NCBI GenBank assembly: GCA_964035545.1
Contig: OZ037766.1
Coordinates: forward strand, 30,153,140 to 30,217,139
DNA length: 64,000 nt
Direction of reading: 5' to 3'
Source of the DNA: Bugula neritina
Lineage: Eukaryota > Bryozoa > Gymnolaemata > Cheilostomatida > Bugulidae
The notes beneath the pieces are model-generated. The model was not told the DNA's origin, searched no databases, and saw only the letters and a list, made by a program, of their open reading frames with translations. The position numbers and the translations under genes were made by a program. Below are positions 12,496 to 41,984 of the stretch, one piece after another (within the stretch, counting starts at the first letter, position 1; each line of letters opens with the position of its first letter).

Positions 12496-12503
12496 TATAA
12501 AAA
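12496..12503 (+). promoter_or_regulatory. TATA box of copy 1
   Basis: TATAAAAA lies about 30 bases upstream of a conserved 5' leader that ends CTTCAAG before donor GTGAAG (12573). The same arrangement with high identity occurs at 28988-28995 before copy 4, which supports a real core promoter with a non-coding first exon. Confidence 0.7.
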
Positions 12504-12526
12504 GGCCCGATTATAAAAACAGAAAC

Positions 12527-13492
12527 TATAGTTTATTGAAAGCAGCAAAGGCACAACATCAAAAACTTCAAGGTGAAGAATGCTTTTCTTGATAATTAGT
12601 ATATTTGTAGTTTTCATATTCAAAAATTAATAAAATATAACAAACTTGATCTCTACTTATATACTTATAAAAACTTTTTGTAGAAACTGAAGATGAGAAC
12701 TTGGATCTTGATAGCATTTGTATTGAGTGTTATAGCAGTCGTATTTGTCTCTTAGCAAAACCAAGCAGACTTTTCCTCTGCAGTATCTCTGCGTAAGTTA
12801 TAGCTTAACTATTTATAATCATATGCTACTTTGGTAAAATTTGTTATTAGATTGCCGTAAAGTGATAGTCAAGCGATTGGTCAAACTTCTATCTTTTTTT
12901 TAAGCAAAAGAAATTAAAAAACAAAATTATCTGAATGTTTTAATTGAAGCTATTTGCTTTGATTTTTCTAGCATTAGCAAATTTTTTTGCTGTTTTGTAT
13001 TTATTGGCTTATTGAAAAAAATATATTCAAAATTATGATTACTAATAAAAATAATATAGTAAACTAAATTTTGATATCTATGATGGAACTGCATTTAGAG
13101 GCCAAAAGTTAATTATATACTTCACATCATTTCTATGACCAAAGTTCGATTTTTCTTTTCAGCATGCCAAGCCTGTCTACGCACTCGTACTCAAGCATGT
13201 CTTCAGCGCTTAGGAGGAGGTAGGGGAGGTAGAGGAGGTAGAGGTGGGAGGAGAGGAAATAGAAGGGGGGGGCAGAACAGGTAAAAGAAGAGAGGGCAGA
13301 TCTGGAAGGAGAAGTAGCCGAAGACAACAAAGAAAAGATGGAAGAAAAGCTAGAAGAAGAGGTCTTGTGAACAAAGCTCAAATCTGCAATGCAGAAGCAG
13401 GAATACTCTCTAGAATTAAGTCTTCAACAACATTTTCTAAAAATATGTGGGTTAGTAGAGTTATAAATAATACTTCCTACTTAATGTTTTGA
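12527..13492 (+). pseudogene. Copy 1 of the secreted basic/mucin family (disabled)
   Basis: The three-exon layout is preserved: leader to 12572, signal exon 12684-12792 with ATG at 12693, and main exon from 13163 (acceptor TTCAG). Three lesions are visible. A TAG at 12753-12755 replaces the TCA seen in copies 2 and 4, inside the signal peptide. A run of eight G at 13265-13272 shifts the frame within the Arg/Gly linker. The 3' part stops matching after ICNAEAG, so the last two cysteines and the Pro/Thr tail are missing. CQACLRTRTQAC and the linker SGRRSSRRQQRKDGRK remain readable. The downstream flank resembles 17985-18420. Confidence 0.85.
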
Positions 13493-13619
13493 TTTATTAC
13501 AGATTAAAATGTATATAATCTTTATGGTATAAAAATCTCATGAAAGGTATTATTTCATTCTTACAAAAATTAATGTATCTTTGCTAATAATTAAGCTGTC
13601 ATTTTTATAGATATAGAAA

Positions 13620-14189
13620 TTTAATCAAGTGTAAAGGTAGCTAAAAATATATCAAAGAGTGGCTTTGGGATACTATGAGGGTTGAAGCTCTGACAATATG
13701 AGTTACTGCGGACAACTTTTCTATTCTAATTGTTGCTGTATACATTTGAAAACGGAAAAATTTTACAAAAATAAAAACAGGGCAATAACATGCCGTGTAC
13801 TAATTGAGACAACAAAGTCATTTATGTTTTAGAAATCTACTTTATATATAACTTGTATATACTAAGAGGGTTTTTATTAATTAAAGATTATATGATAAAC
13901 TATATCAACAAAAAATCTATCTATCATTTCTCCTTGGAGGTAAGACTTTATTTTTTTCAGATCAAATGAAACAATTAATAATAGTTATCATGCCCTTTTG
14001 TAGATCATTTTTACTACAATTCCTATATCAATACAGAACTACATATATAAGTACTTCAATTTTCAGATCTGGGTTACTTTAGAATTCAGAGGATAAGACC
14101 TTGTCCATTTAAAACAAAAACATAATTAAGATGACTGACAGTTCTTCGCTGACATAGTAAATCAAAAAACCTGAAAAATTGCCAATTCA
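13620..14189. other. Non-coding part of the inverted duplication
   Basis: Matches the reverse complement of about 7850-8400. It has no gene of its own. Confidence 0.6.
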
Positions 14190-14700
14190 CCAATGGATGA
14201 TGCCGGTGAAACCTTGAAGTCCACTACATATAGACCATGCTATAAATCTCATGGGAACCAATTGGTTGGTACTTGTGGATGCATATACCAAATATCCTTG
14301 CATTCATCCCACAAGTTCTATGTCAACCAAGGCAAAAACAGACTCACTGAAAATAAACTTCACTCATTTTGGATGCCCGCAATACCATAGTCACTGACAA
14401 TAGACCAAGCTTTACATCTGCATGAGGAGTTTAAAAATTGTGCAAAGACAGAGGAGATAGATACACCTGAGAGGAGCATATTATTACTACCAATGGAGCA
14501 GCAGAATGACTATAGTAGAATCTTTCAAGCAACCACTAACGAAGTTTGCACCATCATCTAGAGAAGCCCTGAAGGAATTCTAGATGCAATACAGGAAAAG
14601 ACCCTTGTCTAATGAACTCTCACCAAGCTAAACACATAGTGAACGCCAGATCCGAACGAAACTATAGATGCATTACTAACATCACCAGCCCATCTTGATT
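14190..14700 (+). pseudogene. Ty3/Gypsy-type integrase fragment
   Basis: Broken plus-strand frames read KSHGNQLV followed by VDAYTKYPC, then THFGCP, VTDNRPSF, EEFKN, YYHPATNGAAER and QYRKTP. These correspond to the DDE integrase core, with the first D in VDAYTK, the second in TDN, and the HP-x-x-NG-x-AER block. Several frameshifts and stops separate the pieces. The inverted partner (about 7.85 kb) lacks this block, so it is an insertion of about 750 bases into the right arm, or a loss from the left. No long terminal repeat was found. Confidence 0.75.
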
Positions 14701-15136
14701 AAAAAAAAACAAATGCAAGAAAAAAGGAGGATTAGGAAACTACACAGCTACTGCACTGTAAGCACACATTGCTACGCTCTATAGTGTCTATAAAATTCCG
14801 AGGAAAAGGTTAGTTGCATGTGATTGATCTTATGATTTTGTTAAAAAGCTTTTTGGAATAATGAGAAGTATGCTTGTGAGCCGGAAATGTTTAGATAGAA
14901 AGCAGCCACATTCCATATCTGAACAAGTTTGATTAATTGCTGAAGAATGAATAGCTATGCTTATCAAAGTTGTACTAAGCTGCAACATCTAATCAGTACT
15001 AGTCTATTGACCCCATCATTCCCTTGGAATCAATAAATCATACTCACCTGACATATAGCCACAGTTTAAACTTAACGTAATCTTATTCAACCAATTAAAA
15101 TTGAAATTAAAGACCATAAGTGTAAAAAATTTATTG

Positions 15137-15145
15137 CATAAAAAC
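15137..15145 (+). promoter_or_regulatory. TATA-like element of copy 2
   Basis: CATAAAAAC stands where copies 1 and 4 have TATAAAAA. It is followed by a leader homologous to theirs that ends at donor GTGTGT (15212). The same sequence is preserved in the inverted relic near 7.64 kb. Confidence 0.5.
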
Positions 15146-15337
15146 AGTAATAACCAAAGAAACTACATTAGTTTACTGAGAGACGCAAAGCTTTAAAGTC
15201 AAAATTTTTAGGTGTGTAAGTTTGTTTCCTAACGACTATTCTTTTTGTAATTTTTATTTATTCATGGATTTACTAAACTCAAAATTTAAATCCATGGGCT
15301 TATACTATAATACATATTTATAGAAACAAAACTCAAG

Positions 15338-16512
15338 ATGAGAGTTTGGATTCTGATAGCATTGATACTGAGCGCAGCAGTAGTGTTGATCTCTTCACAA
15401 AACGAAGCAGGTTTTCCCTCTGGAGTCTCTCTTCGTAAGTTCTTAAGATACAATCCTTTAGACAGAGGTAGTTATATAGCTCCAAAAACTGGCACAGTAA
15501 TGTAATTGTTATGTTTGTGAACTTTGCTCCTAGATTGTAGTAAACAAGTTTTTACAATTGGTAAAATATTTAGCTCAATAGACAAATCAAGTTAAAATTG
15601 AATTATCGTAGTAATTTTACTGATCAGTTATTTATTTTTAATTTTTGCATGACATCAATTTTTTTTATTTTTTTTTTATTTAATATTTTATTAGTAGAAA
15701 ACTAGTTGAAATTACAACTATATTGATAAAATAAATCACTGAATTTTAATACTTATCAGGAAGTTATATTTGCATCTTCTCAGAGTATGTATTGAAAAAC
15801 TACTTTCTATTTCAAAAGTTATTCACAAGTCTTAATTTCTATGACATGCGTTTCATTTATTATTTTAGCTTGCCAGGCCTGTTTACGTACTCGTACTCAA
15901 GCATGTTTTCAGCGTTTAGGAGGTGGTAGGGGTGGTAGAGGTCGTAGGGGTGACAGAGGTGTCAGGAGAGGAAATAGAAGAGGGGGCAGGAAAGGTAGAA
16001 GAGGGGGTAGAAAAGGAGAAAGAAGAGGTAGAAGAGGGAGCAGAAGAGATAGAAGAAGAAGTAGCAGGAAAGAAGGAAGGAGAAGTAGAAAAGAGGAAAG
16101 GAGAAGTCTCAAGATCCAAGCTCAGTTCTGCAATGTAGAAGCAGCAACACTTTGTACTAGTCTTTGTCAGCCACCAATTCAAGCACCCACCTTAGCACCA
16201 ATCACTTCAGCACCAATCACTTCAGCACCAAACACACCACCACCAATTATGCTACCTTTAATTACACCACCACCAATTACACCAGCTCCTATTACACCAG
16301 CACCAATTGCAGCTGCACCAACCACTGCTGTAATAACCAAACCAACGTTAACCACTGCTGCACCAACTGCAGCTGCTCTAACCCCTTCAGCGTTGTTCAT
16401 ACCAGCAGTAGTTGTACTACCACCAACCACAACTGTACCAACAACCACAACTGTACCAACAACCACAACTGTACTAACAACTACGGTAAACCCAATGTAC
16501 CAAGGTAAATGA
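15338..16512 (+). CDS. Secreted Cys-flanked Arg/Gly-rich protein with mucin-like tail (copy 2, intact)
   Basis: Two coding exons, 15338-15434 (donor GTAAGT) and 15869-16512 (acceptor TTTTAG, stop TGA), give 246 residues; a non-coding leader exon ends near 15211. Residues 1-20 are a signal peptide (MRVWILIALILSAAVVLISS), so the product should be secreted. Cysteines at about 34, 37 and 45 (CxxC-x7-C) and at 120, 128 and 132 (C-x7-C-xxx-C) flank a linker of about 65 residues made almost only of Arg, Gly, Lys, Ser and Glu (GRRGDRGVRRGNRRGG). Residues 133-246 are Pro/Ala/Thr/Ile repeats (ITPAP, TTTVP) suited to O-glycosylation. The intron is in phase 1, as in copy 4. I recognise no named family. 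A structural, adhesive or antimicrobial secretion is possible, but that is inference. The 3' end CAAG before GTAAAT could also act as a splice donor. Confidence 0.85.
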
Positions 16513-17984
16513 AGATAACCTCTGAGTAGAAATTACTTTTTTTTTATAACGTGTATAAAACTAGAACAAAACGTATTGTGGTTATAGAAAAAATATTTAA
16601 TACAAATTCCTGTATGTTAATCTTCCATATACACTTTTGTTCAGTAGTTTATATTTAATTTTCTACATGCTCTGTTTAAAATATAACAATAATTATAATA
16701 AATATGCATATGTGGGTACTTTCATGTGTGCAGTGTGTCCAAGCATTTAAATCTGTATTTTAAATAAATTCATTTTTTACCCGCAATTATAGTCTGTTCA
16801 AACTACTAATGAGTAATTTGTCCATGTGTTCACATTGCATCAGTTTTGACTGACCAAGCTTATAGCTGCTTTAAAGGATTATTATTTTAACTGATTATAG
16901 TTAGTTAAAATTTTAATCTATTTACCAATAAGAGTTCATGCAATAGAGCATATAATCAGTCTGTCTTACAGTGAGAAATATAAGTTTAGTAGCCAAATGA
17001 TCACTATAGGATCATTCACTATTACAACTCAGTCAAACTTAATAGCTTAGTCATATATAATCAAATGTATCATGATTTTTCTAAATCTCAAAACATTTAG
17101 TTGAACATAATATCATCAGGCTCTTTTACAGAGTTTAGTCAGAAATAATAACATATATTATAGTTCTGTAAAAGTGTATTGTTAAATAATGATGATTTTA
17201 GCTTGTGGAACAAATGTAAGAGCTCAGCTAATCATTCTCAGATAACCACCAATAATATATGATATCATCGCCAAACTGAATTTTAAGTGCTATAAGCAGT
17301 GCTAAAACTACACAGCTGTAGTACAGCATTTTATAAAATTAGGCTGTCATAAAGCTATAAAATATGCATCTATAGATGCATATTTTACACGTCTTAAATA
17401 AAATAGATGATACCATCAACAAGTATGAATCTCTAATTTAATAAATAGCTTTATGACAGCCTAATTTTCCTGTATTATAAAATTACGTATTATGATGAAG
17501 TAGATACTAATTTCTTTTCATTGTTTTGGTGTATTTACTTAATAACATCATCATTTTTAAAATACAAATATGTCCTGAGATTTTGAGTTTTTTTAAATGA
17601 TGTGACTTAGTATATATAGGACATAAAAAAATACATACATATATAACCTCATTATAAAATAGTTTTAATTTTTAGTTTGTTGAACTAACCAACATCAATG
17701 CTGCCAATACAGTTCAAATACTCGTGGGGATGCAATAGTCGTCATATCTGTGTGATAACCACTGACTGAGAGTTTTTTTAAGAAGACTCTGTCACCATTG
17801 TGGCGAAATAGTAATTGTGACTAAATGCTCTCCCTAAAGTCATCAATGCGTGACCATTAATGGTAACTAAACTACTAAATAAGTGTTTACAAATGCAGCA
17901 ATGTAAATTCTATAGACAACGCAGTTTCACCCTAATATAATAATAAATTAGTTTGCTGTCATATTATATATATTTTCTTGGCAC
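16513..17984. other. 3' flank of copy 2 and AT-rich spacer
   Basis: Contains possible AATAAA signals (16697-16702 and near 16762) and a short fold-back at 17335-17468. No gene seen. Confidence 0.5.
17335..17468. repeat. Short fold-back / MITE-like inverted repeat
   Basis: Arms of 24 bases (17335-17358 and 17445-17468), sharing the core TTAGGCTGTCATAAAGC and its complement, are separated by about 86 bases. No coding content. Confidence 0.65.
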
Positions 17985-19260
17985 AGTCTTCAAAGCCAAG
18001 TCTTCTACATTTTCTAAAAATATGTGGCTTGATTAAATTATGAATAAAACTTTTTGATTTATTACAGATTAAGAATTATAATATCTTTTGGATTGGCAAA
18101 CATTATTTAATTTACCAGAAAAACCTCAAAAAGAATTTTGATTTTATTCTAGTTTGCTAACAAAATGTATCTTTGCTATTAAGATGTCATTTTTATGATT
18201 AATAGATAGAACAATCGAAACTTAAAAGCAACTTAAAATGTCTAATTTGCAAAAAAAATTAGGCCTGAGGTTTTATGATAAAATGAATTTTTGGCCAACT
18301 TTTCTAACCTATTTGTCGTTGGAAACATTTAAAAACAAAAAGCTTTTTAGAAAATAACAATAAAATGCTATGAGACAGTAAACTCAGTTAAATTTCCAAA
18401 GCTACTCACATATATATCAGAATGCTTTTGTACTATTTGAAGGTTATGATAGATTAGCAATTAAAGTAGTTGTAGAAGAAGGTATCCAGCTAGTTCAACC
18501 AAAGTTTTTCAATGGCAATTGTGAAAAAAAAACTGTCAGTCATGTGTTGATGTCTTTTTTCACTAAAACCAAATGCATAAACATTTTACTCACTCAGATA
18601 GAGCCAATCATGTGCCTGTAAGTTTGTTGGCACAACCCGCTTTTATAGTTATACGAAGCAGGCTAAACCGCCATGTGGAAAATTTGAATCAGTGCCATTT
18701 TTCTTATAACACAACTTGTTTTAAGTATTTATGCAAGCTGGAAAGTGATTTATTATAGAGATTAACAATAAAAAGCACGAAAAGATGAATAAATATTATT
18801 ATAAACAAATAACAGCAATTTTTGATATGATCTGTCATATTGCAACCATACATTTTACATCTTTATAAGAATTCTGGAAACGCTTTAAAATTCCAAGCAG
18901 CAATTTTGTATATGATGCTGTTTCTTATTTTTGCTATCAAATAAAGTTTACTGATTATTTAAAATCTTAAGTTAATTTATTTCACGCTTGTAACTGGACA
19001 TATCAGCAATGTGTAACATCAGAACTTGGCAAACATTTCTAACGATAATCACCATTCCAAAAACTACAGAACTTCTTTTGAAAAAGTTATCAATTTCAGA
19101 TGAAGCATGCATGTGGCTAAATTTTTCAATTTGACTTTAGGAGTTTAGTATACTAAAAACTTTTATATTATAATTGAAAACCAATTGCTAACATGGATTG
19201 TGATGTGGGAATATCGAAAATTGCAATATTTTTTTATCTAAAACAATTGGGAATTTTGTG
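17985..19260 (+). repeat. Orphan flank copy of the secreted-family duplication unit
   Basis: 17985-18420 matches the region just after copy 1 (13420-13870, sharing CATTTTCTAAAAATATGTGG). 18910-19250 matches the 3' flank of copy 4 (30490-30790), including the CAAATAAAG poly(A) context. The coding exons between are absent, so this is a gene-less remnant of the unit. Confidence 0.75.
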
Positions 19261-19829: not shown

Positions 19830-19871
19830 AATTTGTATACTTTATTATGTAGCTATGGTTACTCAAAAAAT

Positions 19872-20158
<287 letters not shown>

Positions 20159-21203: not shown

Positions 21204-21372
21204 GTAGAGTAGAGTAGAGTAGAGTAGGGTAGGGTAGGGTAGGGCAGGGTAGGGTAGGGTAGGGTAGGGTAGGGTAGGGTAGGGTAGGGTAGGGTAGGGT
21301 AGGGTAGGGTAGGGTAGGGTAGGGTAGGGTAGGGTAGGGTAGGGTAGAGTAGAGTAGAGTAGAGTAGAGTAG
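21204..21372 (+). repeat. Pentamer array TAGGG/TAGAG (array 1)
   Basis: About 34 units; GGGTA in the centre, GAGTA on both edges, one GGGCA near 21241. Followed by GGTAACGGTTGGT-type sequence also found beside the 28.7 kb array. The TLPYP-like open frames are artefacts. Confidence 0.95.
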
Positions 21373-21417
21373 GGTAATGGTAACGGTTGGCAACGGTTGG
21401 TAACAGTTGGTATATAA

Positions 21418-21965: not shown

Positions 21966-22620
21966 ATTGTCAAGACTGCTTACGTACTCGTAGTCAAGCA
22001 TGTCTTCGCCGTCTAGAAAATAGTAGGAGAGGTAAAAGTAGTAGAAAAGCCAGAAGAAAAGGCAGAAAAAGTATAAAAAAAGGAAGTAGAAGTAGTAGAA
22101 AGAAAGGGGGCAAATCTGCAAGGAGAAATAGCAGAAGACAACAAAAGAGAGATGACAGAAGAGCTAGAAGAAGAGGTCTTGGGAACAGAGCTCAACTCTG
22201 CAATGTAGCAGCAGGACAGCTCTGTGTTACTTTTTGCCAGCCGCCAACCTCAGCAACTACACCATTTCCAATTACTCCAGCACCAATCACCCCAGCACCA
22301 TTCACACCACCTCCATTTATACTATACCTGTCATTACACCAGCACTCATTACACCAGCTCCTATTACACCAGCTCCTGTCACTGCTGCACCACCAACTCC
22401 CGAACCAACCTCCACAACAACCTCTGCACTAACCCTAGCACCAACCCCTTCACCAACCCCCGCACCAACCCAAGCCCCAACTCCAGCACCAACCACCACA
22501 ACAACCACCACAACAACCACCACAACAACCACCACAACAACCACCACAACAACCACCACAACAACCACCACAACAACCCCCACAACAACCGCTGCACCTG
22601 GTCCAAAGGGAAAAAGATGA
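21966..22620 (+). pseudogene. Copy 3 of the secreted basic/mucin family (no signal exon, frameshifted tail)
   Basis: The main exon starts after acceptor TTTCAG (21965) and keeps all six cysteines: CQDC, x7, C, then C-x7-C-xxx-C ending CQPP. Between them is a linker rich in Arg, Lys and Ser (GKSSRKARRKGRKS, RRQQKRDDRRARRR). An extra TA at about 22325-22326, relative to copy 2, shifts the Pro/Thr tail out of frame. The original frame then runs to a stop at 22432 as His/Gln/Leu-rich sequence, while the ancestral tail (TPAPITPAP, a long Thr run, GPKGKR) continues in another frame to 22620. No signal exon or leader was found in the 5.4 kb upstream; a pentamer array and mobile elements occupy it. 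A shortened, active product spliced from elsewhere cannot be excluded. Confidence 0.75.
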
Positions 22621-24370: not shown

Positions 24371-24884
24371 AGATAGCAACAGGTCTTAAGAAGTACAGCA
24401 AAAACTTAAACAGAAAAAAATTTAAACCAATTATTTTAAAATGTTGCTTTAAAACATATATAGCTATTTAGTGAAGTCAGCGAAACATACTTTTCTGTAT
24501 ATTATAAGCAAGTAAACGAAATAACACCAATTATCATATTTATAGAACGCTACTTCCTTTATATCCAAAGCTGAACATTAGCAACGAGCTTTATTACCAC
24601 TTTGGAGATTTAAAGTTATTTTAGCTCTTTCTATTAAGCTTCATCTAAAATTGAGGCCTAACTAAATGTTATAAAATATAAATAGGTTTCTGAAAATTGT
24701 GAATTCAGTCTGCTCATTCTTTTCCTCAAAACATATACTTAAAACTTCAAGGTCACGTTCTTTACAGTAAGATAGTGACCACCTACAAAGCACCAGAATA
24801 CACACTAGAAACAAAAAACATACAATGTAAATGTATATAAGCTGTGGTGAACTGAAGTGGTGTTTCAGAATAAGCTGTGAAAAT

Positions 24885-25850
24885 GGGTGGGCAACTTCAA
24901 ATTTCTGTATATTCCCCTATAAATATGACAAACAATTTGATATATTCCTAAATGGGTAGGCAACTTTGAGCTTATGTACATTTCACTATAAAAATGACAA
25001 ACAAGGGTGCAGATCATAAATGGGTGACAACTTCAAGTTTATGCAAATTCTGCAATAAAGATGGCAAACAAGACAGCTTTGATAGTGGGTGGGCAACTTC
25101 AATTTTAACTAGATTTTACTATAAAAGTGACTAACAAGAAAGTTGAAATATGGGTGGGCAACTTCAACTTTATAAAAATTTTGCCATAAAGATGACAAAC
25201 AATAAAATTAGGAAATAGGTGGGCAACTTCAATTTTATGTACATTTCACTATCAAGATGGCATACAAGAAAGTTAGAAAATTGGTGGGCAACTTCAATTT
25301 TATGTACATTTCACTATCAAGATGGCATACAAGACTGTTCAGAGGTTGGTGGGTACTTTATATTCAATGTAAATTTTATTTTTGAAATGACAAACAATTT
25401 GACACGTTTATAAATGGGTGGGCAACTTCAATGTTGTGTACATTCAGTTATAAAAATGACCAACAAGAGTGTTCGGAATTTGGTGTACAAACTAGACTTT
25501 ATGTAAATTTTACTATAAAGGAGATAAACAAGAAATTTAGAACATAGTGTAATGGATTTTCATCCCCTATCGTTTTGAAAAATTCTAGTTGCTATCACTG
25601 AAAAATACCCTGCCTTTTGTTCTCTCTCACAAAGTTACTACAATAGGTAGGCAACTTCACGCTATAAAGATGATTAACAATAATATCTGATCATAAGTGG
25701 GTGACCTCAACTTTATACACACTGCTCTATAAAAATGACAAACAAATAAAAACTTGTGAAAATAGGTGGGCAATTTCTAATTCATGTACATTTTACTATA
25801 AAAATAACTAACAAGGAAATGGAAAAATGGGTAGGCAACTTTCAGTTAAA
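24885..25850 (+). repeat. Minisatellite with period of about 65 bases
   Basis: About 14 diverged units beginning GGGTGGGCAACTTCAA and ending near ATGACAAACAAG, interrupted at about 25545-25644. Units near 25216 and 25281 are almost identical to each other, showing local homogenisation. Non-coding. Confidence 0.9.
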
Positions 25851-27539: not shown

Positions 27540-28770
27540 AATATTTTGCTATTCATACATGATTGGTTAAGTATACAATTGTAGACGATATCACAATATG
27601 TTGAAATTATATAAAACTAACTAACAATCTACCAACATTCAAGTGAAATATTTTATCTGTTATATCATATGTGTATATATACAGTCAAGGGAGACTGACA
27701 TAATACACTGAGCTTCAACTACCACTTTGCTTTTGCGACAGTCACTTAATACAAGACAGTGCATTGAAGCTAATGAATCTGGATTAGTGTAGGACAGATA
27801 ATAACAGTTAATCTCGTTATTTATGTTATAGGGATGGCTGAGGCTGAAATAATAGTAAATTATTTATAACGCAAGCTCTGAAATCAATCATGGACAGTGG
27901 GTGGCAGCCAAGAACAGCAACTATCTCGTAAAGATTTTTTGAAATGCCAATTTTGACTATTTAAATGTTTTAAATGACAAAATTGGGCTTTGCTTTTAGA
28001 AAGATTGTGCTTTTTGACAAACCTTGAGATATCATTTGCTCTGCTAATTATACGTTTAACATATGAGGAGAGGGGCATGCACCCTATAAAACATTCACAA
28101 TTATATGTGTGTAACTGCAGAATTAATGTAAATTTCTGGTGTCATCAAACAGATATTCTACATTTTAGTGTAGCACAGCATGTCTTCTGGCCCTAATTAA
28201 ATTTAACCAGAAAAAAGCAAATTCAAAATGTTTTTGGACCTGCCTAATTAGATAAAACGTTATATGCTAAACCGTTCTCAACAGTCACTTTATTGAAATA
28301 AAAACTTTTTCAATGAATCATTAACCCCTACCCCTACTTCAAGGTACCCTGGAAAAGATGGTAAAATATATCCAACAATATATTTCAGCCATTATAATAA
28401 CACTAATATACATACTCCAACTCTATATCCTAGCAGAGATGCATATAAAATATGTTGAGATTTTATACTGTGCAAGTCTACTATATATTAATTCACTTCA
28501 TATAGAGTAGAGTAGAATAGAGAAGAGAAGGGTAGAGTAGAGCAGGGCAGGGCAGGGCAGGGCACGGCAGGGCAGGGCAGGGCAGGGCAGGGCAGGGCAG
28601 GGCAGGGCAGGGCAGGGCAGGGCAGGGCAGGGCAGGGCAGGGCAGGGCAGGGCAGGGCAGGGCAGGGCAGGGCAGGGCAGGGCAGGGTAGGGTAGGGAAG
28701 GGAAGGGAAGGGTAGGGTAGGGTAGGGTAGAGTAGAGTAGAGAGGAGTAGAGTAGGGTAGAGTAGGGTCA
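27540..28770 (+). repeat. Left arm of a second inverted repeat
   Basis: Reverse-complement match to 32690-34052 over about 1.2 kb, including the pentamer array at its inner end. The interval between holds copy 4, a further pentamer array and a CR1-like insertion. A third copy of the outer part lies at 43125-43600 in direct orientation. Confidence 0.85.
28503..28770 (+). repeat. Pentamer array GGCAG/GGTAG/GAGTA (array 2)
   Basis: GAGTA edges, a GGCAG core of about 30 units (28540-28686) and a GGGTA/GGGAA transition. It differs from the partner arm, whose core is GGCGG on this strand sense. Confidence 0.95.
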
Positions 28771-28987: not shown

Positions 28988-28995
28988 TATAAAAA
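28988..28995 (+). promoter_or_regulatory. TATA box of copy 4
   Basis: TATAAAAA about 30 bases before a leader exon that ends CTTTAAG at donor GTGAAG (29062). Upstream and leader sequences match copy 1 closely (ACTTTGAGTAT, GGCACAACATCAAAAACTT). Confidence 0.75.
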
Positions 28996-29186: not shown

Positions 29187-30335
29187 ATGAGAACTTGGAT
29201 CTTGATAGCATTTGTATTGAGTGTAGCAGTGGTGTTTGTCTCTTCACAAAACCAAGCAGACTTTTCCTCTGCAGTATCTCTGTGTAAGTAATTTAATTCT
29301 TTATGATTATATGTTATTTTTGTAAATTTTGTTATTAGATTGCAGTAAAGTGATAGTCAAGTGATTGGGCAAATTTTTAAACTTTTTCAGACAAAAGAAA
29401 TTGGAAAAAAGAATTATCTGAATGTCTTAATTGAAGCTAATTGTTTTGACTTTTCTAGCATTAGGAAATATGTCTGCTACTTTGTATACTGTTGATAAAA
29501 ATATAGCAAATTAAATTTTGATACCTATTACGTAACTGCATTTTATAGAGGTCAAAAGGAAATTATACTTTACGTCATTTCTATGGCCAAATTTTGATTT
29601 GTTATTTCAGCATGCCAAGCTTGTTTACGTTCTCGTACTCAAGCATGCCTTCAGCGCTTAGGAGTAGGTAGAGGAGGCAGGGGTGGTAAAGGGAAAAAGA
29701 GAAAAAATAAAAGAGGAGACAGGAGAGGCAATAGAAGAGCGGGCAAGAGCAAGAGAGGCAATAAAAAAGGGGGCAAAAGAAGTAAAAGAAAAGGGGGCAA
29801 GAGAAGTAAAAGAAAAGGGGGTAAAGATGGAAAGAGATCAGCTCGAATTTGCAATATAGAAGCCCAGCGACTCTGTATTAGCTTTTGTCAGCCACCAGCC
29901 CCAGCACCTACACAACCACCAATCACACCAGCTCCAATTCGTGCAGCACGAATTACACCAGCACCAATTATGATACAACTTATTACACAAGCACCTATTA
30001 GACCAGCACCAATAACACCACCACCAATTACTGCTGCACCAACCACTGCTGCACCAACTACTACTACACAAGCCATCGTCGCACGATTCGCTGGCGCAAT
30101 CATCTTCGCACCAGCACCCACTACAACAACAACCACTACAACAACAACACCCACTACAACAACAACACCCACTACAACAACAACACCCACTACAACAACA
30201 ACACCCACTACAACAACAACACCCACTACAACAACAACACCCACTACAACAACAACACCCACTACAACAACAACACCCACTACAACAACAACACCCACTA
30301 CAACAACAACTTCAACGCCAGATAAAAGAAAATAA
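29187..30335 (+). CDS. Secreted Cys-flanked Lys/Arg/Gly-rich protein with mucin-like tail (copy 4, intact)
   Basis: Two coding exons, 29187-29283 (donor GTAAGT) and 29611-30335 (acceptor TTTCAG, stop TAA), give 273 residues; a leader exon (about 29018-29061) follows a TATA box. The signal peptide is MRTWILIAFVLSVAVVFVSS. Cysteines at about 34, 37 and 45 and at 113, 121 and 125 keep the spacing of copy 2. The linker is more Lys-rich, with a repeated KGGKRSKRK motif. The tail has ITPAP-type units and then about nine exact PTTTTT units made by an 18-base tandem repeat, ending STPDKRK. The signal exon is almost identical to that of copy 1, so copies 1 and 4 are the closest pair. Length variation of the Thr tract between individuals is expected. 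The function is unknown; secretion is well supported. Confidence 0.87.
30118..30310 (+). repeat. 18-base coding tandem repeat in copy 4
   Basis: About nine copies of an ACAACAACAACACCCACT-type unit in frame, each encoding five Thr and one Pro. Confidence 0.93.
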
Positions 30336-30500: not shown

Positions 30501-30506
30501 AATAAA
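30501..30506 (+). terminator. Poly(A) signal of copy 4
   Basis: AATAAA about 165 bases after the stop, in the context ACTATCAAATAAAG shared with 18.9 kb. Confidence 0.7.
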
Positions 30507-30814
30507 GTCTACTGGTTATTTAAAATCCTAAGCTAAAATATTTTATGCTTGTTACTAGACATTTAAGGAATTCGCAACATCAGAACTTGGCAAACATTTC
30601 TAACAATACTTACCATTCCAAAAACTACAAAAAAAAATTTGACAAAGTTATCAATTTCAGATGAAGCATGCATGTGGCTAAATTTTCAATTTGACTTCAG
30701 GAGTTTAGTATACAAACAACTTTTATATTATAGCTGAAAGCCAATTGCTAACATAAATTGTGATGTGGGAAAATATTTTTTATTTAAAATAATTGGATTA
30801 GATTAGAGAAGAAT

Positions 30815-31080
30815 AAGGTAGAAAAGAGTAGAGTAGAGTAGAGTAGAGTAGAGTAGAGTAGGGTAGGGTAGGGTAGGGTAAGGTAGGGTAAGGTAGGGTA
30901 GGGTAGGGTAGGGTAGGGTAGGGTAGGGTAGGGTAGGGTAGGGTAGGGTAGGGTAGGGTAGGGTAGGGTAGGGTAGGGTAGGGTAGGGTAGGGTAGGGTA
31001 GGGTAGGGTAGGGTAGGGTAGGGTAGGGTAGAGTAGGGGAGGGTAGGGTAGGGTAGGGTAGGGTAGGGGAGGGTAGAGTA
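30815..31080 (+). repeat. Pentamer array TAGGG (array 3)
   Basis: GAGTA edge followed by nearly perfect GGGTA units with a few AGGTA and GGGGA variants. It ends at GTATAACTTAAGGTAATAAATAAC, also seen after array 5. Confidence 0.95.
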
Positions 31081-31162: not shown

Positions 31163-32462
31163 CTTGATTGATTGATTGATTTTATTTCTATCACTAACCT
31201 GATATATGTTGTGCCAAAAAAAGGTGTTGAATACCGATGCCCCTGATATTAAAAATGATAACAGTGTAACATACATGGCTTAAAAATAAGAATAAAAAGT
31301 CTCTGAGGCTGGAAATCAATTGACAAAAATTATTATACAAGTTTATTTAGCTTGAGTGCTGCCTGGCGTATAAAAGAATCTCTGCCCCATGCATGTGCTT
31401 CTGTATTTAATAGTACGATATCGTCCTGATGGGCCCTTTTCAAGAAAGTCCTTTAGAAAATGATTGTCATCATGTATATATTGCAGTAGCAAGATTTTAG
31501 TTCTGACATCTATTAGATTGTCGATATCCCCAAGATCTTTGATGCGCCTAGTTTGAGTGCCTCTTTAAAAAAGTGCCGGAGTTGCTTTTTATCTTTAGCA
31601 TACAGGGAGATGTAAAGAATGGGCAGACAGTAAGTAAGAAGGGAGATAATAAAACTTTTAAATAGCATACTAGCCAGGGTGGTTGAACAAAGGTAAACAA
31701 AATTTCTAACAATATATAACATTCTTTGACTAGCTTTTGTTGCCACAGAGTTAATGCGCTCTTCAAAACGAAGTTTGTTGTCTATATCCATACCCCTACA
31801 TATTTCACATTGTCACTAAAACTGATACTAACATGATTCAAAATCATAGCAGGGGTGTCTGGCTAAATCCTGTTAGTGGAAAACAATATTTCTTGGGTCT
31901 TACTTGGGTTCAACAAAAGGGCTAAGGAATTACATTCATTGGATATTCTATTTACTTCAAAAAAATAATTACTCAAAGCAGACTCATCCGAAATACAACC
32001 TATTACACAAGTGTCGTCTGCATATTTTAAAATAGTGACATTATATACTAGTTTGAGATGTAATTCCATCAGTGTAAACAGAAAACAAAAGAGGGCTTAA
32101 CACAGAACCTTGGGGAGTGCCTGTAAAATTGGTAACAATAGGCTGAGACATATAGTGCCATCAACTAATGTTCTTTGAACTCGGCCACTGAGGAAACTGG
32201 TTATTCATCCTGTTACATTACAGTCCAGATGTTGTAGCTTAGGTATAAGATGACTAATGTTTATAGTACTAAAAGCAAAAAAGAGAAATCTAGGAACAGG
32301 CATGGTGAGTAATTACAATTAGCTTGTCCGTCAATAAAATTAGTAACAGTCGTAGCGAGGCAGAGCGCTGCATCCTGGGTTGAACGGTGTGAGCGATAAG
32401 CAAACTGAAATTTATCCAAGGGAGTGTGGTTAGAGATGTAGTTCTTCATAAGTCTCTCTATA
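31163..32462 (-). mobile_element. 5'-truncated CR1/Jockey-like non-LTR retrotransposon
   Basis: Broken minus-strand frames read reverse transcriptase motifs in the expected order: KFQFAYRSHRSTQDA, LFLDFS, ILKYADDTCVIG (the catalytic YADD), LLLNPSKTQEI, then DIDNKLRFEERINS and ATKASQRMLYIVRNF of the thumb/C-terminal region. Several frameshifts and a stop show it is dead. The 3' end carries tandem AATC units (31165-31182). It interrupts sequence found uninterrupted at 36305-36340: the flanks GAGGCCCTACACCT (left) and TTTATTATATAGACTATTC (right) are contiguous there, which fixes both ends of the insertion. Confidence 0.85.
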
Positions 32463-32689
32463 AATATTTATTATATAGACTATTCTGTAATTAGACTATA
32501 AGTTAACTAACTATATATATAGCACTACTATATATCTTAAAAAACAACACCACCTGTAAAAGAATTTCTTGCACTAGACTGGGCTTGAGGACTACACTTC
32601 ACCTGGGCTAGGGTTTGTGCCCTTTCAACTACTGTTTTTATTTACTAATTCACTTTCAAAGCTAGCTTAGCTCAGCTACCCTACTCTAC

Positions 32690-33058
32690 CATACCCTACT
32701 CTACCATACCCTATTCTACTCTTCCCTATTCTACTCTTCCCTACTCTACTCCACTCTACTCTGCTCTGCCCTGCCTTGCCCCGCCCCGCCCCGCCCCGCC
32801 CCGCCCCGCCCCGCCCCGCCCCGCCCCGCCCCGCCCCGCCCCGCCCCGCCCTGCCCCGCCCCGCCCTGCCCTGCCCTGCCCTACCCTACCCTACTCTACT
32901 CTACCCTACCCTACTCTACCCTACTCTACTCTACCCTACTCTACTCTACTCTACTCTTCTCTACCCTACTCTACCCTACTCTACTCTACTCTACTCTACT
33001 CTACTCTATCCTACCCTTCTCTTCTCTACCCTTCTCTTCTCTATTCTACTTTATTCTA
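32690..33058 (-). repeat. Pentamer array (array 4, reverse orientation)
   Basis: On the plus strand CCCTA/CTCTA edges enclose a CCCGC core (about 32776-32860) and CCCTG transitions. It is the inverted partner of array 2. Confidence 0.95.
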
Positions 33059-34052
33059 TATGAAGTGAATTAATATATAGTAGACTTGCACAGTATAAAA
33101 TCTTAACATATTTTGTATGCATCTCTGCTAGGATATAGAGTTGGAGTACGTATATTAGTGTTATTATAATGGCTGAAATATATTGTTGGATACATTATAC
33201 CATCTTTTCCAGGATACCATGAAATAGGGGTAGGGGTTAATGATTCATTGAAAAATTTTATATTTCAATAAACTGACTGCATGTTGAGAACGGCTCAGCA
33301 AATAAATTTTTTTTTATTATAGGCAGGTCCAAAAAACATCTTGAACACGTTTTTTTCTGGTTAAATTTAATTAGGGTCAGAAGACATGCTGTTTTACACT
33401 AAAATGTAGAATATCTGTATGATGACGAATTTACATTAATTCTGCGCAGCTACACACATATAATTGTGAATGCTTTATATAGGTTACATGCCCCTTTCCT
33501 CATATGTTAAACTTATTAGCAGAGCAAATGATATTTTAAGGTTTGTCAAAAAGCACAATCTTTCTAAAAGCAAAGCCCAATTTTGTCATTTAAAACTTTT
33601 AAATAGTCAAAATTTGCGTTTCAAAAGAATTTTACAAAGTTTGCTGTTTTTGGCTGCCACCCACTGGCCATGCATGATTTATTTCAGAGCTTGCATAAAT
33701 AATTTACCATTATTTCAGCCTCAGACATTCCTATAACATAAATAACTGTAAGCGCATGCTTTAGATGATTAACTGTTATTATCTGTCCTCCACTAATCCA
33801 GATTCATTAGCTTCAATGCAAAGTCTTGTATTAAGTGCATGACTGTCGCAAAAGCAAAATGGTAATTGAAGCTCAGTATATTATGATATTATGTCAGTCT
33901 CCCTTGACTGTGCATGTACACACATATATATAGTAGATAAAATATTTTACTTCAATCTTGGTAGATTGTTAGTAAGTTTTATATAATTTCAACTTGTAAT
34001 ATATTCTACAATTGTATACCTAACCAATTATGTATGAATAGCAAATTATTCT
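32690..34052 (-). repeat. Right arm of the second inverted repeat
   Basis: Reverse-complement partner of 27540-28770. Matching landmarks include the TTTAGAAAGATTGTGC-type sequence near 28000 and 33560, and GTAGATTGTTAGT near 27630 and 33960. Confidence 0.85.
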
Positions 34053-34053
34053 C

Positions 34054-34502
34054 AAGTTGCGTTTATACCTCTGCTGAAAAAAGTACCGAGTTTAGGTTAA
34101 TAACGCTTTTCCGGGTACCCCTTTATAGTCAAACTTAAACTCGTTGAAATCATATTGATGCGGTTGCTCACTTTCTGAAATTGAAATTTGACTCGCATAA
34201 TAGCTATTTGATGCCCTTTGTAAATGTCGTGAATTAGTGAAGCGGAAAGCATAAAAGCGATAATTGAGAAAGCGTAGGCTATATAATTATAACCGTATAA
34301 GTACGTTGTCTAATCGCCAAAGTAATAACTAAATAACGATGTTTACACGGAGTTATTACTCCTATTCTAAAATTGGCCGATTAAGTTATCACAGTACAAA
34401 AATTTCAACGGGTGGCTTTTACAATGCAATGCAACTCAGAGAAATTTCAACCCGGCCAAATTGAAATTTTGACCGAAAATCGTGAAGGTTTAAACGCAAC
34501 TT
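34054..34502. mobile_element. MITE with 17-base terminal inverted repeats (full copy)
   Basis: Begins AAGTTGCGTTTATACCT and ends with its complement (one mismatch, AGGTTTAAACGCAACTT), about 450 bases, with no open frame of interest. The flanking sequence resembles the uninterrupted region near 10100. Right-end and internally deleted copies are at 21418-21531 and 36931-36997. Confidence 0.75.
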
Positions 34503-35140
34503 CATACAAACATTTTCAACAGAAATATTTACTAAACTGTATGTGGGGGAGAGTTATTATAGACATGGAATGCATATACAATACATGGTGCATACAGATT
34601 CAAAAATAATATGTTCAGGGCATTACCAGTATCTAAATAAAGTGCTTCTTTCCCCAAAGATATTGGTCAGTGAAATGGTGTAGTGACCAAAGTTTAACTG
34701 AGGTGATTATTATTTACATAATTCAAATGCTATCAGTCAGAGTGTTATATATATAGACAATTTATAATACGCAAATAAAAATATGCAAATATATACTACT
34801 TGAAATTCCTAATTGGTTGTATTGTAATTATTTCTAAAGTATGCATGCAGGACACATATATACTGTGTGCGTGTGTCTACTGTATTATACCAGTTGTCGT
34901 ATTTGATTTATTGACGCTTGATTAAACATTTCAATTAGGTTCATCTTAATAAAACTACAACACTATAAATTATCAACAAAAAGAAAGAGAATCTAAGTAT
35001 AAAATAACATAATGGAATACAGAATGCCTGGTGGTTCTGTTCATAGTAAGATACTGACTACTAATTTTCATCTTATACTTGCTTGCTATAATAAATAACT
35101 ATAAATAGCTATAATAGCTATAAACAGTAGCTAGCTAGTA
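34503..35140. other. Duplicated flank, no gene
   Basis: 34560-34740 resembles 10200-10390. Nothing else recognised. Confidence 0.5.
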
Positions 35141-36225
35141 AAGTAGAGAAGAGTAGGGTAGAGCAGAGTAGGGTAGGGTAGAGTAGAGTAGAGTAGAGTA
35201 GAGTAGGGTAGGGTAGGGTAGAGTAGGGTAGGGTAGGGTAGAATAGGGAAGAATATATTATAGTAGGGTAGGGTAGAGTAAAGTGGGGTAGGGTGGAGTA
35301 GGGTAGGGTAAGGAAGAGTAGAGTAGAGTAGGGAAGAGTAGAGTAGAGTATAGAGTAGAGGTGGGTAGGGTAGGGTAGGGTAGGGTAGGGTAGGGTAGAG
35401 TAGGGTAGAGTAGAGTAGAGTAGAGTAGGGAAGGGTAGAGTAGGGTAGGGTAGAGTAGAGTAGAGCGGAGTAGGGTAGAGTAGAGTAGAGTAGAGTGGGG
35501 TAGGGTAGATCAGGGTAGGGTACTAGAGAAAAGTACAGTAGAGTAGAGTAGGGAAGAGTACAGTAGAGTAGGGTAGGGAAGAGTACAGTAGAGTAGAGTA
35601 GGGAAGAGTAGAGTATAGAGTAGAGGTGGGTAGGGTAGAGTAGGGTAGGGTAGGGTAGGGTAGAGTAGGGTAGAGTATGGAGTAGAGTAGAGTAGAAAAA
35701 AGTAGAGTAGCGTAGGGTAGAGTAGAGCGGAGTAGAGTAGGGTAGAGTAGAGTAGAGTAGAGTGGGGTAGGGTAGAGTAGGGTAGAGAAGAGTAGAGTAG
35801 AGTAGAGTAGGGAAGAGTAGAGTAGAGTAGAGTGGGGTAGGGTAGAGTAGGGTAGGGTAGGGTAGAGTAGGGTAGAGTATGGAGTAGAGCAGAGTAGAGA
35901 TGAGTAGAGTAGGGTAGGGTAGAATAGGGTAGAGTAGAGTAGAGTAGGGTAGTGTAGAGTAGGGTAGTGTAGGGTATGGTAGAGTAGAGCGGAGTAGAGT
36001 AGGGTAGAGTTGAGTAGCGTAGAGTGGGGTAGGGTAGAGTAGGGTAGGGTAGAGAAGAGTACAGTAGAGTAGAGTAGGGAAGAGTAGAGTAGAGTGTAGA
36101 GTAGAGGTGGGTAGGGTAGAGTAGGGTAGGGTAGGGTAGAGTAGGGTAGAGTAGGGTAGAGTATGGAGTAGAGTAGAGTAGAGAAGAGTAGAGTAGCGTA
36201 GGGTAGTGTAGGGTAGGGTAGAGTG
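35141..36225 (+). repeat. Pentamer satellite TAGGG/TAGAG with higher-order structure (array 5)
   Basis: About 1.08 kb of GGGTA and GAGTA units with recurring variant blocks. GTAGAGGTGGGTAGGG occurs near 35355, 35618 and 36105; GAGCGGAGTAG near 35462, 35722 and 35984; GAGTATGGAGTAG near 35672, 35876 and 36160. Roughly 260-base spacing recurs, so longer blocks were duplicated. The 376-residue STLPY-type frame is an artefact, since the 15-base triple unit has no stop. Confidence 0.93.
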
Positions 36226-36930
36226 TAACTTGAGGTAATAAATAACAATTAATCTAATCATGTTATATATTAAAGTTTTATGGCTATGACTGAGAAAATT
36301 TGTGCTGTGAGGCCCTACACCTAATGGTTTTTTATTATATAGGCTATTCTGAAATTAGACTATAAGTTATGTAACTATACATATAGCACCACTATGTATC
36401 TTAATATTACAACACCACCTGTAAAGTTTTTTCTTGCACCAGACTGGGCTTGAGTACTGCACTTCACCCGGGCTAGGGTTTGTGCCTGTTCCACCACTGT
36501 TTTTGATTACTAACTCACTTTCAAAGCTAGCTTAACTCAGCTGTATAGCTAGCTACTGTTAGCTATTATAACTATTTATAGGTATTTATTATAGCAAGCA
36601 AGTAGATGAAAATTAGTAATTAGTATCTTACTATGAACAGAACCACAAAGTATTTTTATACCATCATGTTATTCTATACTCAAGTTTTGTTTCTTTTTGT
36701 TGATAATATTTTATAGTGTTGTATATAGTTTCAATAAGAAATGATCAATTTCTTGTGTAATGTTTTGTAATGCTATCAGTCCATCATTTATTATATTATA
36801 GTTAACATTGCTTTATAGGTGTCATGGTTGTTTGGTTGGTTACGGTTGATAACTGTTGGTAATGGTTGGTTGGTTATATAAGAAAGGTTGGTCTGTTATA
36901 TAATAACAGTAAAGATGAAATTCAACCTGC
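36226..36930. other. Duplicated flank with the empty site of the CR1-like insertion
   Basis: 36226-36540 matches 31081-31162 joined to 32463-32660. No gene seen. Confidence 0.7.
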
Positions 36931-36997
36931 GAAGTTGCGTTTATACCTCTAATGAAAGGTATAAAGGTATGAAGGTATAAAGGTATAAAGGCAACTT
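36931..36997. mobile_element. Internally deleted mini-copy of the 34 kb MITE
   Basis: About 67 bases with both ends (AAGTTGCGTTTATACCTC and GGCAACTT) around several GGTATAAA/GGTATGAA repeats. The related site near 28860 (CAACCCGTGAGTCTCT) lacks it. Confidence 0.7.
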
Positions 36998-38299
36998 GAG
37001 TCTCTTGGGCCTAGTAATTCACTCAACTGGCAGACTGTGAAGTGAAAACTTCATACCACCTATGCATAGACATTATAAATGATCAGAATAATTTGGCTGT
37101 ATTTTTAATTTGTTTTAAGTAACAGTTATTTTTTATTATTATTTTTATAAAGAGTAATCTTTTATGGTTAACACCAGCATGCTATTAGATTGGCAATGAG
37201 CAGCTAGTTAACTGACAATTGTATTATCAAGCAGAATTACTATAGATATTATAGTTTTCATGTTCGAAGAGCTGATACTCTTCAAGCAACTTTCTGGATA
37301 AGATGGGAACGTCAAACAAAAAATTATAGCTTGTTTTTTTAATAGTGTGTCATAGCTGCTGGTCATTACTTCATTTCTCATATTTTGTTATAATTACTTT
37401 AGGCTACTATACCATGCAACAGCTGAAGTCATAAAGTTATTCAAATTTTGTATAGTTTCAATAACTTTATATATAGCCTACTGCCAATTGAATTTTTTGC
37501 TATTCTCATTATAATGAAACTTTATCAATAACAAAAATTTTATTTTTCATTTGCCAGAATGATAATCGAGTTAGTTTACTTCATTTAGTACACACCGGCA
37601 ACTTATGACCTATCATTAAAGTTTGCTCAAAATCAATCGAAATTTACTATACACGCTATTTTTATGTGCTGGTATTAACTATACGCAAAACAGAAAAGGC
37701 TGGAAGGGGATTCCCCAAAATTAAAGCCAGGTCATTGTCATGTGCGCTTAATATTCTATATGTGCTAACCGTTACGAAAAAAAAACCGTAAAGGTCCGTA
37801 ACCAAAACTAGCTGAATAATTAGGAAAAAACATCGGAAATAAAGCAAAATTAAAAAGAACTTTGATTATTTAGGTGTATTTTTTGGTGTTTTACTAGTTT
37901 TGGCTAAAAGACCATGTTCAAATTACCAGCTAAATTGTGAAAAAATAGCAAAAAACTGAAGTTATCCAGTGTGTACTAAATTAGGTAAAATGACCCAATC
38001 ACATATCTATAGTCTCTTGATGTTGACTTAAATTACATAAAAATAGTTTATTGGGACAAAGAAGAGATTAGATTCTTTTAATCTTGGATTAGCCAGAGGT
38101 TTGGGCCCTGCAGTTGACAATAAGTATTATATATTGTCTAAGATCTACGTATTTAAATATATTATTTTATGGCATTTAATAAATATTACCAACAGAATTA
38201 TAACGGTTCAGCAAGTAAATCCAACAAAATAAAACCACGATTTTTAGCTTTAGTTTATCTGAAATAATTTTAGTTGAAAACATCAGCTATGCCTTCATA
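36998..38299. other. Upstream flank of copy 5, no gene
   Basis: 37060-37270 matches 43790-43990, and 38220-38290 matches 11450-11540, so this is the 5' flank of the duplicated unit. Promoter, leader and signal exon of the family are absent. Confidence 0.65.
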
Positions 38300-38695
38300 G
38301 AAAAGTTAAAAGAGAAATTAGAAATAGTAAAGGGGGCATATCTGGGAGGAGAAGTAGCAGAAGGCAACAAAATAGAGATGACAGAAGAGCTAGAAGAATT
38401 GAGGTCTTGGGAACAGAATTTAAATCTGCAATATAGAAGCAGGAAAACTTTCTGCTATTTTTTGCCAGCCGCCAACCTCAGCACCTACACCATGTTCAAT
38501 CACCTCAGCATCAATCACTGCAGCACCATTCACACCATCGCCATTTATGCTACCTTTCATTACAATAGCACTCATTACACCACCACCAATTACATCAGCT
38601 CCCGCTTACACCAGCCCCTACAGCACTGCAGCTCCAGTTACGACTGCACCAAAAACTACTGCAACAGCAACTGCTGAACCAACTCTAGCGCACCA
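38300..38695 (+). pseudogene. Copy 5 of the secreted basic/mucin family (5' deleted)
   Basis: Aligns to copy 3 from the middle of the basic linker (SGRRSSRRQQNRDDRRARR) through an ICN-equivalent, CQPP-equivalent sequence and the Pro/Thr tail, but with a stop, frameshifts and no signal or first-cysteine segment. The unit's upstream flank (matching 11450-11540) is joined directly to the linker, so one deletion removed promoter, leader, signal exon and the CxxC segment. The 3' untranslated sequence (GCATCTGTGCGG, TGCAAATTAACATG) matches copy 3, its closest relative. Confidence 0.8.

Positions 38696-38889: not shown

Positions 38890-41984
<3,095 letters not shown>

What the first reader, a model, noticed from the sequence alone, without database searches (positions are those of the whole stretch)
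12496..38695. Clustered family of secreted proteins: split six-cysteine motif around an Arg/Gly/Lys linker, with a mucin-like tail
Five loci share signal peptide, CxxC-x7-C, a 60-70 residue basic low-complexity linker, C-x7-C-xxx-C-QPP, then a Pro/Thr tail. Exon phases and cysteine spacing are constant while linker and tail vary greatly. The combination of polycationic linker and O-glycosylatable tail in one secreted chain matches no family I know. Adhesive, matrix/mineral-binding or antimicrobial roles are inferences.
Basis: partly seen in the sequence, partly recalled or inferred. Interest (0 to 1): 0.88.

Follow-up and report, generated by a model that had tools for sequence, protein, structure and literature searches.

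The report
Bryozoan secreted polycation-mucin protein family
A small cluster of genes in the sea-moss Bugula neritina appears to encode secreted proteins in which two cysteine-bearing arms flank a very positively charged stretch in front of a sugar-prone threonine/proline tail, a design that would fit an underwater glue or body-coat protein, although no expression data were available here.

Summary
The window is chromosome 2 of the bryozoan Bugula neritina. Across the 204 kb examined I count about 17 loci, five intact, in three clades. Phase-1 intron and all six cysteines are constant in the five intact genes. Signal exon plus cysteine arms are under purifying selection (dN/dS 0.23-0.35). The linker keeps a constant basic fraction (49-53% K+R) while the Lys:Arg ratio changes. 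The cysteine spacing is mirrored, and both AlphaFold models make each arm a helix. I read this as a clasp with nested disulphides closing a polycationic loop; that pairing is inferred. Pfam, NCBIfam and PDB gave no credible relative. Eukaryotic protein databases could not be searched, so orphan status is untested, as is expression. Best reading: a lineage-specific secreted glue or matrix protein, comparable in layout and turnover to Drosophila Sgs glue genes, with no homology shown. Part of the copy number may be uncollapsed haplotypes. Moderately interesting, not exceptional.

The parts
15338..15434 (+). alpha gene, exon with ATG and signal peptide (32 codons + 1 base), phase-1 donor GTAAG
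15435..15868 (+). alpha gene, intron (predicted GT..AG)
   Evidence: no transcript data
15871..15918 (+). alpha gene, N arm CQACLRTRTQACFQRL (C1-C3)
15919..16116 (+). alpha gene, basic linker, 66 aa, net +27
16117..16176 (+). alpha gene, C arm QAQFCNVEAATLCTSLCQPP (C4-C6)
16177..16512 (+). alpha gene, Pro/Thr tail (111 aa; 15-bp and 18-bp repeats) and stop
29187..29283 (+). gamma gene, signal-peptide exon
29284..29610 (+). gamma gene, intron (predicted)
   Evidence: no transcript data
29613..29660 (+). gamma gene, N arm CQACLRSRTQACLQRL
29661..29837 (+). gamma gene, basic linker, 59 aa, net +29
29838..29897 (+). gamma gene, C arm SARICNIEAQRLCISFCQPP
29898..30335 (+). gamma gene, Pro/Thr tail (145 aa; 18-bp PTTTTT-type repeat, 11.1 copies) and stop
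30501..30506 (+). AATAAA downstream of the gamma gene
   Evidence: (offset 165 from the stop)
28988..28995 (+). TATA-like box of the gamma gene (TATAAAAA); the same string stands at 12496-12503 before the decayed locus
   Evidence: upstream alignment; promoter role inferred
12693..13410 (+). decayed locus: signal exon with in-frame stop; exon 2 with broken frame, family sequence ends after the fourth Cys (end approximate)
21968..22620 (+). exon-2-only locus (delta clade); no signal exon found; frame change in tail
38401..38714 (+). C-terminal half only; one of the three C-arm Cys reads Ser
7330..7669 (-). relict signal exon (start codon lost) and upstream part on the minus strand

Best explanation
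A small, locally duplicating family of secreted structural proteins. SHOWN from sequence: two coding exons with a phase-1 intron after the signal peptide (splice sites predicted, no transcripts); six cysteines in mirrored spacing (x2, x7 / x7, x3); a linker of about 50% Lys+Arg between the halves; a P/T tail. PREDICTED: each arm is a short helix. INFERRED: the arms fold back as an antiparallel hairpin with nested disulphides (C1-C6, C2-C5, C3-C4) that clasps both ends of the basic segment, so the polycation is displayed as a closed loop and stays attached to the tail even if a protease cuts at its many dibasic sites. The loop would bind acidic polysaccharides, mucins or negatively charged surfaces, and the O-glycosylated tail would hydrate and extend the molecule. 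That is a plausible component of an underwater adhesive or of the cuticle/pellicle secretion, for example of larval attachment organs.
For: Intact frames, constant phase and six Cys in 5 of 5 intact genes. Purifying selection on signal exon plus arms in 3 of 3 between-clade comparisons, which share branches. Linker K+R fraction 0.49-0.53 in 5 of 5 although K:R runs from 5:28 (alpha) to 17:14 (gamma1); the coding frame is the most basic and lowest in acid in 5 of 5; net charge per residue exceeds the maximum of 2000 base shuffles in 3 of 5 genes, and is below that maximum but far above the mean in 2 of 5. Both AlphaFold models give helices at N arm and C arm (10-residue blocks with mean pLDDT 69-89) with a low-confidence linker. 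Cys of the N arm lie within 80 degrees and of the C arm within 120 degrees of the helical wheel. Tail S+T 29-49% and P 18-27%, with repeat units in multiples of 3 bp. Analogy: Drosophila Sgs glue genes share signal peptide, phase-1 intron, Thr-rich repeats, clustering and rapid gain and loss (passages of PMC6352337; abstract and outline of PMC10835880). In B. neritina larvae the internal sac attaches the animal; its neck has inclusions that aid initial attachment and its roof has secretory material (passages of PMC3133996).
Against: No expression, localisation or disulphide data. AlphaFold had only 3 aligned sequences, one of them from the exon-2-only locus; pTM 0.40 and 0.35; no coordinates were available to me, so arm-arm packing and Cys pairing are unverified; in the alpha model the C-arm helix runs on from deep in the linker (54-99). 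Hydrophobic moments of the arms do not beat shuffles (7 of 7 arms, smallest p 0.099), and mirrored spacing within one residue has a chance of about 6% under a crude model. No Tyr-rich content typical of some marine glues (recalled): mature Tyr 0-1 in 5 of 5. Any secretory tissue could be the site.
Confidence: 0.4

Rival explanations
1. Host-defence or symbiont-control protein: the polycationic segment, free or clasped, acts on bacterial surfaces; the mucin-like tail keeps it in surface mucus. B. neritina carries a vertically transmitted bacterial symbiont (recalled), so a cationic secreted family could police it.
For: Net +25 to +37 linker, pI about 12, six Cys; clustered gain and decay of copies.
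Against: Arm moments not above shuffles; a Gly/Arg/Lys chain with few hydrophobics is unlike most membrane-active peptides (recalled); no Pfam AMP family match in 3 proteins scanned. The literature search for B. neritina host genes showed no paper on it among the 10 rows listed of 751 (titles and abstract starts).
Confidence: 0.2
2. Precursor of a processed two-chain peptide: proprotein convertases remove the linker at RX(K/R)R and dibasic sites, leaving two short helices joined by disulphides, in the manner of insulin or relaxin.
For: 1-3 RX(K/R)R sites per protein and 13-17 overlapping dibasic pairs per linker; Cys confined to the two arms; variable connecting segment.
Against: Cys pattern is 3+3 with x2/x7 and x7/x3 spacing, not the insulin pattern (recalled); the C arm runs straight into a 102-145 residue P/T tail, odd for a hormone; charge density of the linker is kept constant, unexpected for a discarded spacer.
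Confidence: 0.12
3. Carbonate- or chitin-associated cuticle matrix protein of the zooid wall rather than a glue.
For: The same chemistry would bind acidic polysaccharides; a layer of shell material is visible outside the epidermis at 4 h after attachment in B. neritina (passage of PMC3308966).
Against: No acidic domain, and no known chitin-binding domain by Pfam in 3 proteins scanned.
Confidence: 0.18
4. Largely non-functional locus: low-complexity purine and ACC/ACA tracts expanding in a decaying duplicated region, with apparent multiplicity inflated by uncollapsed haplotypes.
For: 12 of about 17 loci are broken or partial (my count); long collinear blocks of about 91-99% identity with an N run at one junction; 5-bp and dinucleotide arrays around.
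Against: dN/dS 0.23-0.35 across three clades, exon 1 conserved against introns, five intact frames.
Confidence: 0.1

Closest known systems
Drosophila salivary glue genes Sgs1/Sgs3/Sgs7/Sgs8 (PMC6352337, passages; PMC10835880, abstract and outline)
   Same: Clustered secreted proteins; phase-1 intron at the signal peptide; Thr/Pro-rich repeats prone to O-glycosylation; repeat number variable; gene gain, loss and inversion.
   Different: The Sgs intron interrupts the signal peptide, here it lies after it; Sgs keep the conserved part at the C-terminus after the repeats, here the Cys module precedes the tail and is split by a polycationic segment. No sequence test against Sgs was made.
Alpha-hairpinins and other disulphide-stapled helical hairpins, e.g. 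CHCH proteins (recalled)
   Same: Two helices with mirrored Cys spacing that would pair as nested disulphides.
   Different: Those have two disulphides and short loops (recalled); here six Cys and a 57-80 residue basic segment between the arms. No Pfam hit; pairing not shown.
Saposin-like proteins (recalled)
   Same: Six Cys with nested 1-6, 2-5, 3-4 pairing; first motif CxxC; all-helical.
   Different: Much longer helices and other spacing (recalled); no Pfam or Foldseek hit.
Polycationic/coacervating marine glue proteins (sandcastle-worm kind; recalled)
   Same: Gly-, Lys- and Arg-rich secreted segments.
   Different: No Tyr-rich repeats; mucin-like tail and Cys arms in the same chain.

Membership tests
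Secreted protein (classical) | N-terminal signal peptide | tested here: met
   Met-Arg then a hydrophobic core ending near ..SSQN in 5 of 5 intact genes, read by eye; no signal-peptide predictor was run
Mucin-like protein | Pro/Thr/Ser-rich repeated domain | tested here: met
   Tail S+T 29-49%, P 18-27% in 5 genes; 15-bp, 18-bp and 12-bp repeats at the window loci
Mucin-like protein | O-glycosylation | not testable with these tools
   needs biochemistry
Drosophila Sgs glue family | Phase-1 intron interrupting the signal peptide | tested here: not met
   Phase 1 shared, but here the intron falls in codon 33, after the signal peptide, against PMC6352337 passages
Drosophila Sgs glue family | Sequence homology of the conserved C-terminal part | not tested
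   no Sgs sequence at hand; protein database off
Drosophila Sgs glue family | Expression in a glue gland | not testable with these tools
   no expression data
Alpha-hairpinin | Two nested disulphides from CxxxC...CxxxC (recalled) | tested here: not met
   CxxC-x7-C...C-x7-C-x3-C, six Cys in 5 of 5
Insulin/relaxin | Insulin Cys pattern or Pfam match | tested here: not met
   In 3 proteins scanned no Pfam family at E <= 1 except a sub-threshold eIF-3 zeta hit (0.26, over the basic linker, in 1 of 3)
Saposin-like | Pfam or fold match | tested here: not met
   Pfam none in 3 proteins; Foldseek 0 matches to PDB for 2 of 2 models, but the models are of low overall confidence
Cationic antimicrobial protein | Kills or binds microbes | not testable with these tools
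   bench assay needed
Cationic antimicrobial protein | Amphipathic cationic helix | tested here: inconclusive
   Arm moments not above shuffles; linker modelled as coil in gamma, partly helical in alpha at low to middling confidence

The most novel reading that the evidence does not exclude
A previously undescribed protein design private to bryozoans: a three-disulphide helical clasp that presents a large closed polycationic loop on a mucin stalk, with loop charge density maintained by selection while its residues turn over by in-frame repeat slippage, serving as the sticky component of the bryozoan underwater glue.
Probability: 0.2. Interest if true: 0.68.

Novelty: new variant of a known kind. 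Interest (0 to 1): 0.45.

Why it matters
The listings (titles and abstract starts) showed no paper that names a bryozoan glue protein, and B. neritina is a well-known fouling animal (recalled). A small gene family whose products combine a polycation, cysteine arms and a mucin-like tail gives concrete candidates for that glue or for the body coat, and a natural series in which loop charge is kept while its sequence changes. If it is only one more fast-evolving lineage-specific secreted family, it is ordinary biology.

Tried and rejected
Known families: Pfam (3 of 5 intact proteins; only a sub-threshold eIF-3 zeta hit, 0.26); NCBIfam (5 proteins; 1 of 5 hits U2AF, best E 0.0021, which I reject as an Arg-rich low-complexity match); PDB by sequence (one row each, E 6.9 and 1.3, taken as chance); Foldseek (0 matches for 2 of 2 models). 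Wider genome: exon-2 queries gave 18 of 19 and 19 of 21 rows inside C2:30.11-30.29 Mb, the rest weak (E 0.66; 0.00998 and 3.43; rows are not all separate loci); exon-1 DNA 9 of 9 and signal peptide 11 of 11 inside. A collagen-like reading was dropped because I saw no G-X-Y periodicity in the linker (by eye). Saposin membership was dropped on spacing (recalled) and lack of hits. Open frames at 40.85-41.92 kb and 31.5-31.8 kb(-) look like retroelement pieces (recalled impression) but, with a piece at 62.6-62.9 kb(-), gave no Pfam hit at E <= 0.1 (4 of 4 pieces). Literature, judged by titles and abstract starts: searches (17 of 17 listed; 15 of 33; 12 of 186; 10 of 751; 10 of 48; 4 of 4) showed nothing describing this family; most subscription literature is not held. 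The rRNA family search did not complete twice and was dropped, because the species was settled by assembly size, chromosome 2 length and mitochondrial length. Prokaryote and viral contig collections were not scanned for the family.
Full report
WHERE THIS IS. The window lies in an assembly of 215.85 Mb in 295 contigs, on contig C2 (33,575,671 bp), at 30,153,140-30,217,139. The mitochondrial contig is 15,248 bp; I read its genes with the invertebrate mitochondrial code. The published Bugula neritina assembly tzBugNeri2.1 has 216.00 Mb, chromosome 2 of 33.58 Mb and a 15.25-kb mitochondrion (section 5 of PMC11480708). I therefore take the window to be B. neritina chromosome 2.

THE OBSERVATION. 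Two genes in the window are complete. Alpha: 15338-15434 plus 15869-16512, 246 aa. Gamma: 29187-29283 plus 29611-30335, 273 aa. Each has a signal exon ending in phase 1 before GTAAG, then one exon that encodes CxxC-x7-C, a basic linker, C-x7-C-x3-C-QPP and a Pro/Thr tail. Three more intact genes lie outside the window: delta at -36447/-35708, gamma2 at -28224/-27798 and gamma3 at 107883/107533 on the minus strand, in window-relative coordinates (delta reads CQLP where the others have CQPP). In the 204 kb examined I count, by merging matches by hand, about 17 recognisable loci plus two weak ones (near -2.8 and 72.5 kb), of which five are intact.

REAL GENES. Pooling signal exon and both arms, dN/dS is 0.32 (alpha-gamma1), 0.23 (gamma1-delta) and 0.35 (alpha-delta), Fisher p 0.002, 1e-5 and 0.002 (counts, test). 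The site numbers are small and the three comparisons share branches. Exon 1 is 77-80% identical between these clades while intron 2 is 48-63% identical. TATA-like boxes (12496 and 28988) and a downstream AATAAA are present; a 5' UTR intron is only a guess from GT/AG signals. No transcript was available, and I did not see the Ensembl gene models that the paper mentions.

LINKER AND TAIL. Linkers have 57-80 residues, net charge +25 to +37, and K+R at 49-53% in 5 of 5 genes, yet Lys:Arg is 5:28 in alpha, 17:14 in gamma1 and 9:19 in delta; Gly ranges from 7 of 57 (delta) to 18 of 59 (gamma1). The DNA is 82-89% purine, but frame 0 is the most basic; frame 1 is acid-rich and frame 2 carries 8-11 stops. 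Net charge per residue exceeds the maximum of 2000 base shuffles in 3 of 5 genes and not in 2 of 5 (gamma1 and delta). At the window loci, tails begin with a 15-bp repeat (roughly PITPA) and end in repeats of 18 bp (alpha), 18 bp (gamma) and 12 bp (the 21.97-kb delta locus), so slippage of whole units changes length without losing frame.

CLASP HYPOTHESIS. All five intact proteins have exactly six Cys, 3 and 8 residues apart before the linker and 8 and 4 apart after it, so C3/C4, C2/C5 and C1/C6 are almost equidistant from the loop. AlphaFold2 on the start of exon 2 of alpha (120 residues) and of gamma (113 residues), each with the same three window sequences, gives a helix at 2-16 in both, and at 54-99 (alpha) or 71-92 (gamma); arm blocks have mean pLDDT 69-89, overall pTM 0.40 and 0.35. 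Against it: helical moments are no better than shuffles in 7 of 7 arms, and mirrored spacing has a crude chance of about 6%.

RELATIVES. Pfam (3 proteins), NCBIfam (5 proteins), PDB sequences and Foldseek (2 models) gave no credible match. Within the genome the family is confined to one cluster as far as these queries reach. The large protein database was off, so absence from other animals is untested.

COPY NUMBER CAVEAT. Self-comparison (matches of 700 bases or more) shows collinear blocks of about 91-99% identity: -12 to 27 kb with 63 to 104 kb; -36 to -12 kb with 21.5 to 44.6 kb; 44.6 to 63.2 kb inverted with 125 to 108 kb; a 5,000-base N run lies at 83,135-88,134. These may be true recent segmental duplications or haplotypes not collapsed in this part of the assembly. 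The paper reports purge_dups, manual correction of one haplotypic duplication, and 0.7% duplicated BUSCO genes. The three clades alpha, gamma and delta are too divergent (dS 0.5-0.8) to be alleles.

FUNCTION. The best-supported mechanism is a secreted glue or matrix protein: clasped polycation for binding acidic polysaccharides or surfaces, glycosylated tail for hydration. The nearest documented parallel I found is the Drosophila Sgs glue genes: signal peptide, phase-1 intron, Thr-rich O-glycosylatable repeats, a cluster, rapid gain and loss (passages of PMC6352337; abstract and outline of PMC10835880). Their intron interrupts the signal peptide and their conserved part is C-terminal, so I do not file this as a member. 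B. neritina larvae attach by everting the internal sac; its neck has inclusions that aid initial attachment and its roof has secretory material (passages of PMC3133996). Whether these genes act there is unknown. Rivals are antimicrobial or symbiont control, cuticle matrix, a processed two-chain peptide, and a mostly decayed locus.

VERDICT. A real, lineage-local secreted gene family with an unusual combination of parts, mostly decayed copies in this window, no experimental support and no test of novelty against animal proteomes. Interest 0.45.

Noticed in passing
window-relative -36000 to 138000 (G000:C2:30117000-30291000): Mosaic of large, about 91-99% identical direct and inverted blocks with a 5,000-base N run: recent segmental duplication or uncollapsed haplotypes.
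   Followed up: partly
24879-25542: 65-bp satellite, 10 copies, 70% matches (unit contains GGGTGGGCAACTTCAA).
   Followed up: no
21204-21376, 28503-28768, 30799-31080, 32676-33058, 35137-36224: Long 5-bp arrays (TAGGG/TAGAG/GCAGG kind), several beside the family's loci; possible substrates for local rearrangement.
   Followed up: no
40850-41918: Open frames next to a long TA repeat that look like a retroelement piece (recalled impression); no Pfam hit at E <= 0.1.
   Followed up: partly
G000:C6:11174072-11175412 and G000:C4:5169166-5169759: COX1 matches in chromosome-size contigs, probably nuclear copies of mitochondrial DNA; the C6 copy matches the profile nearly as well as the mitochondrial contig.
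   Followed up: no
G000:C17:12213-13505 and G000:C196:13159-17283: Further COX1 matches: one without stop codons in a 17-kb contig, one split in a 65-kb contig; possibly sequence of symbionts or other organisms in the assembly.
   Followed up: no
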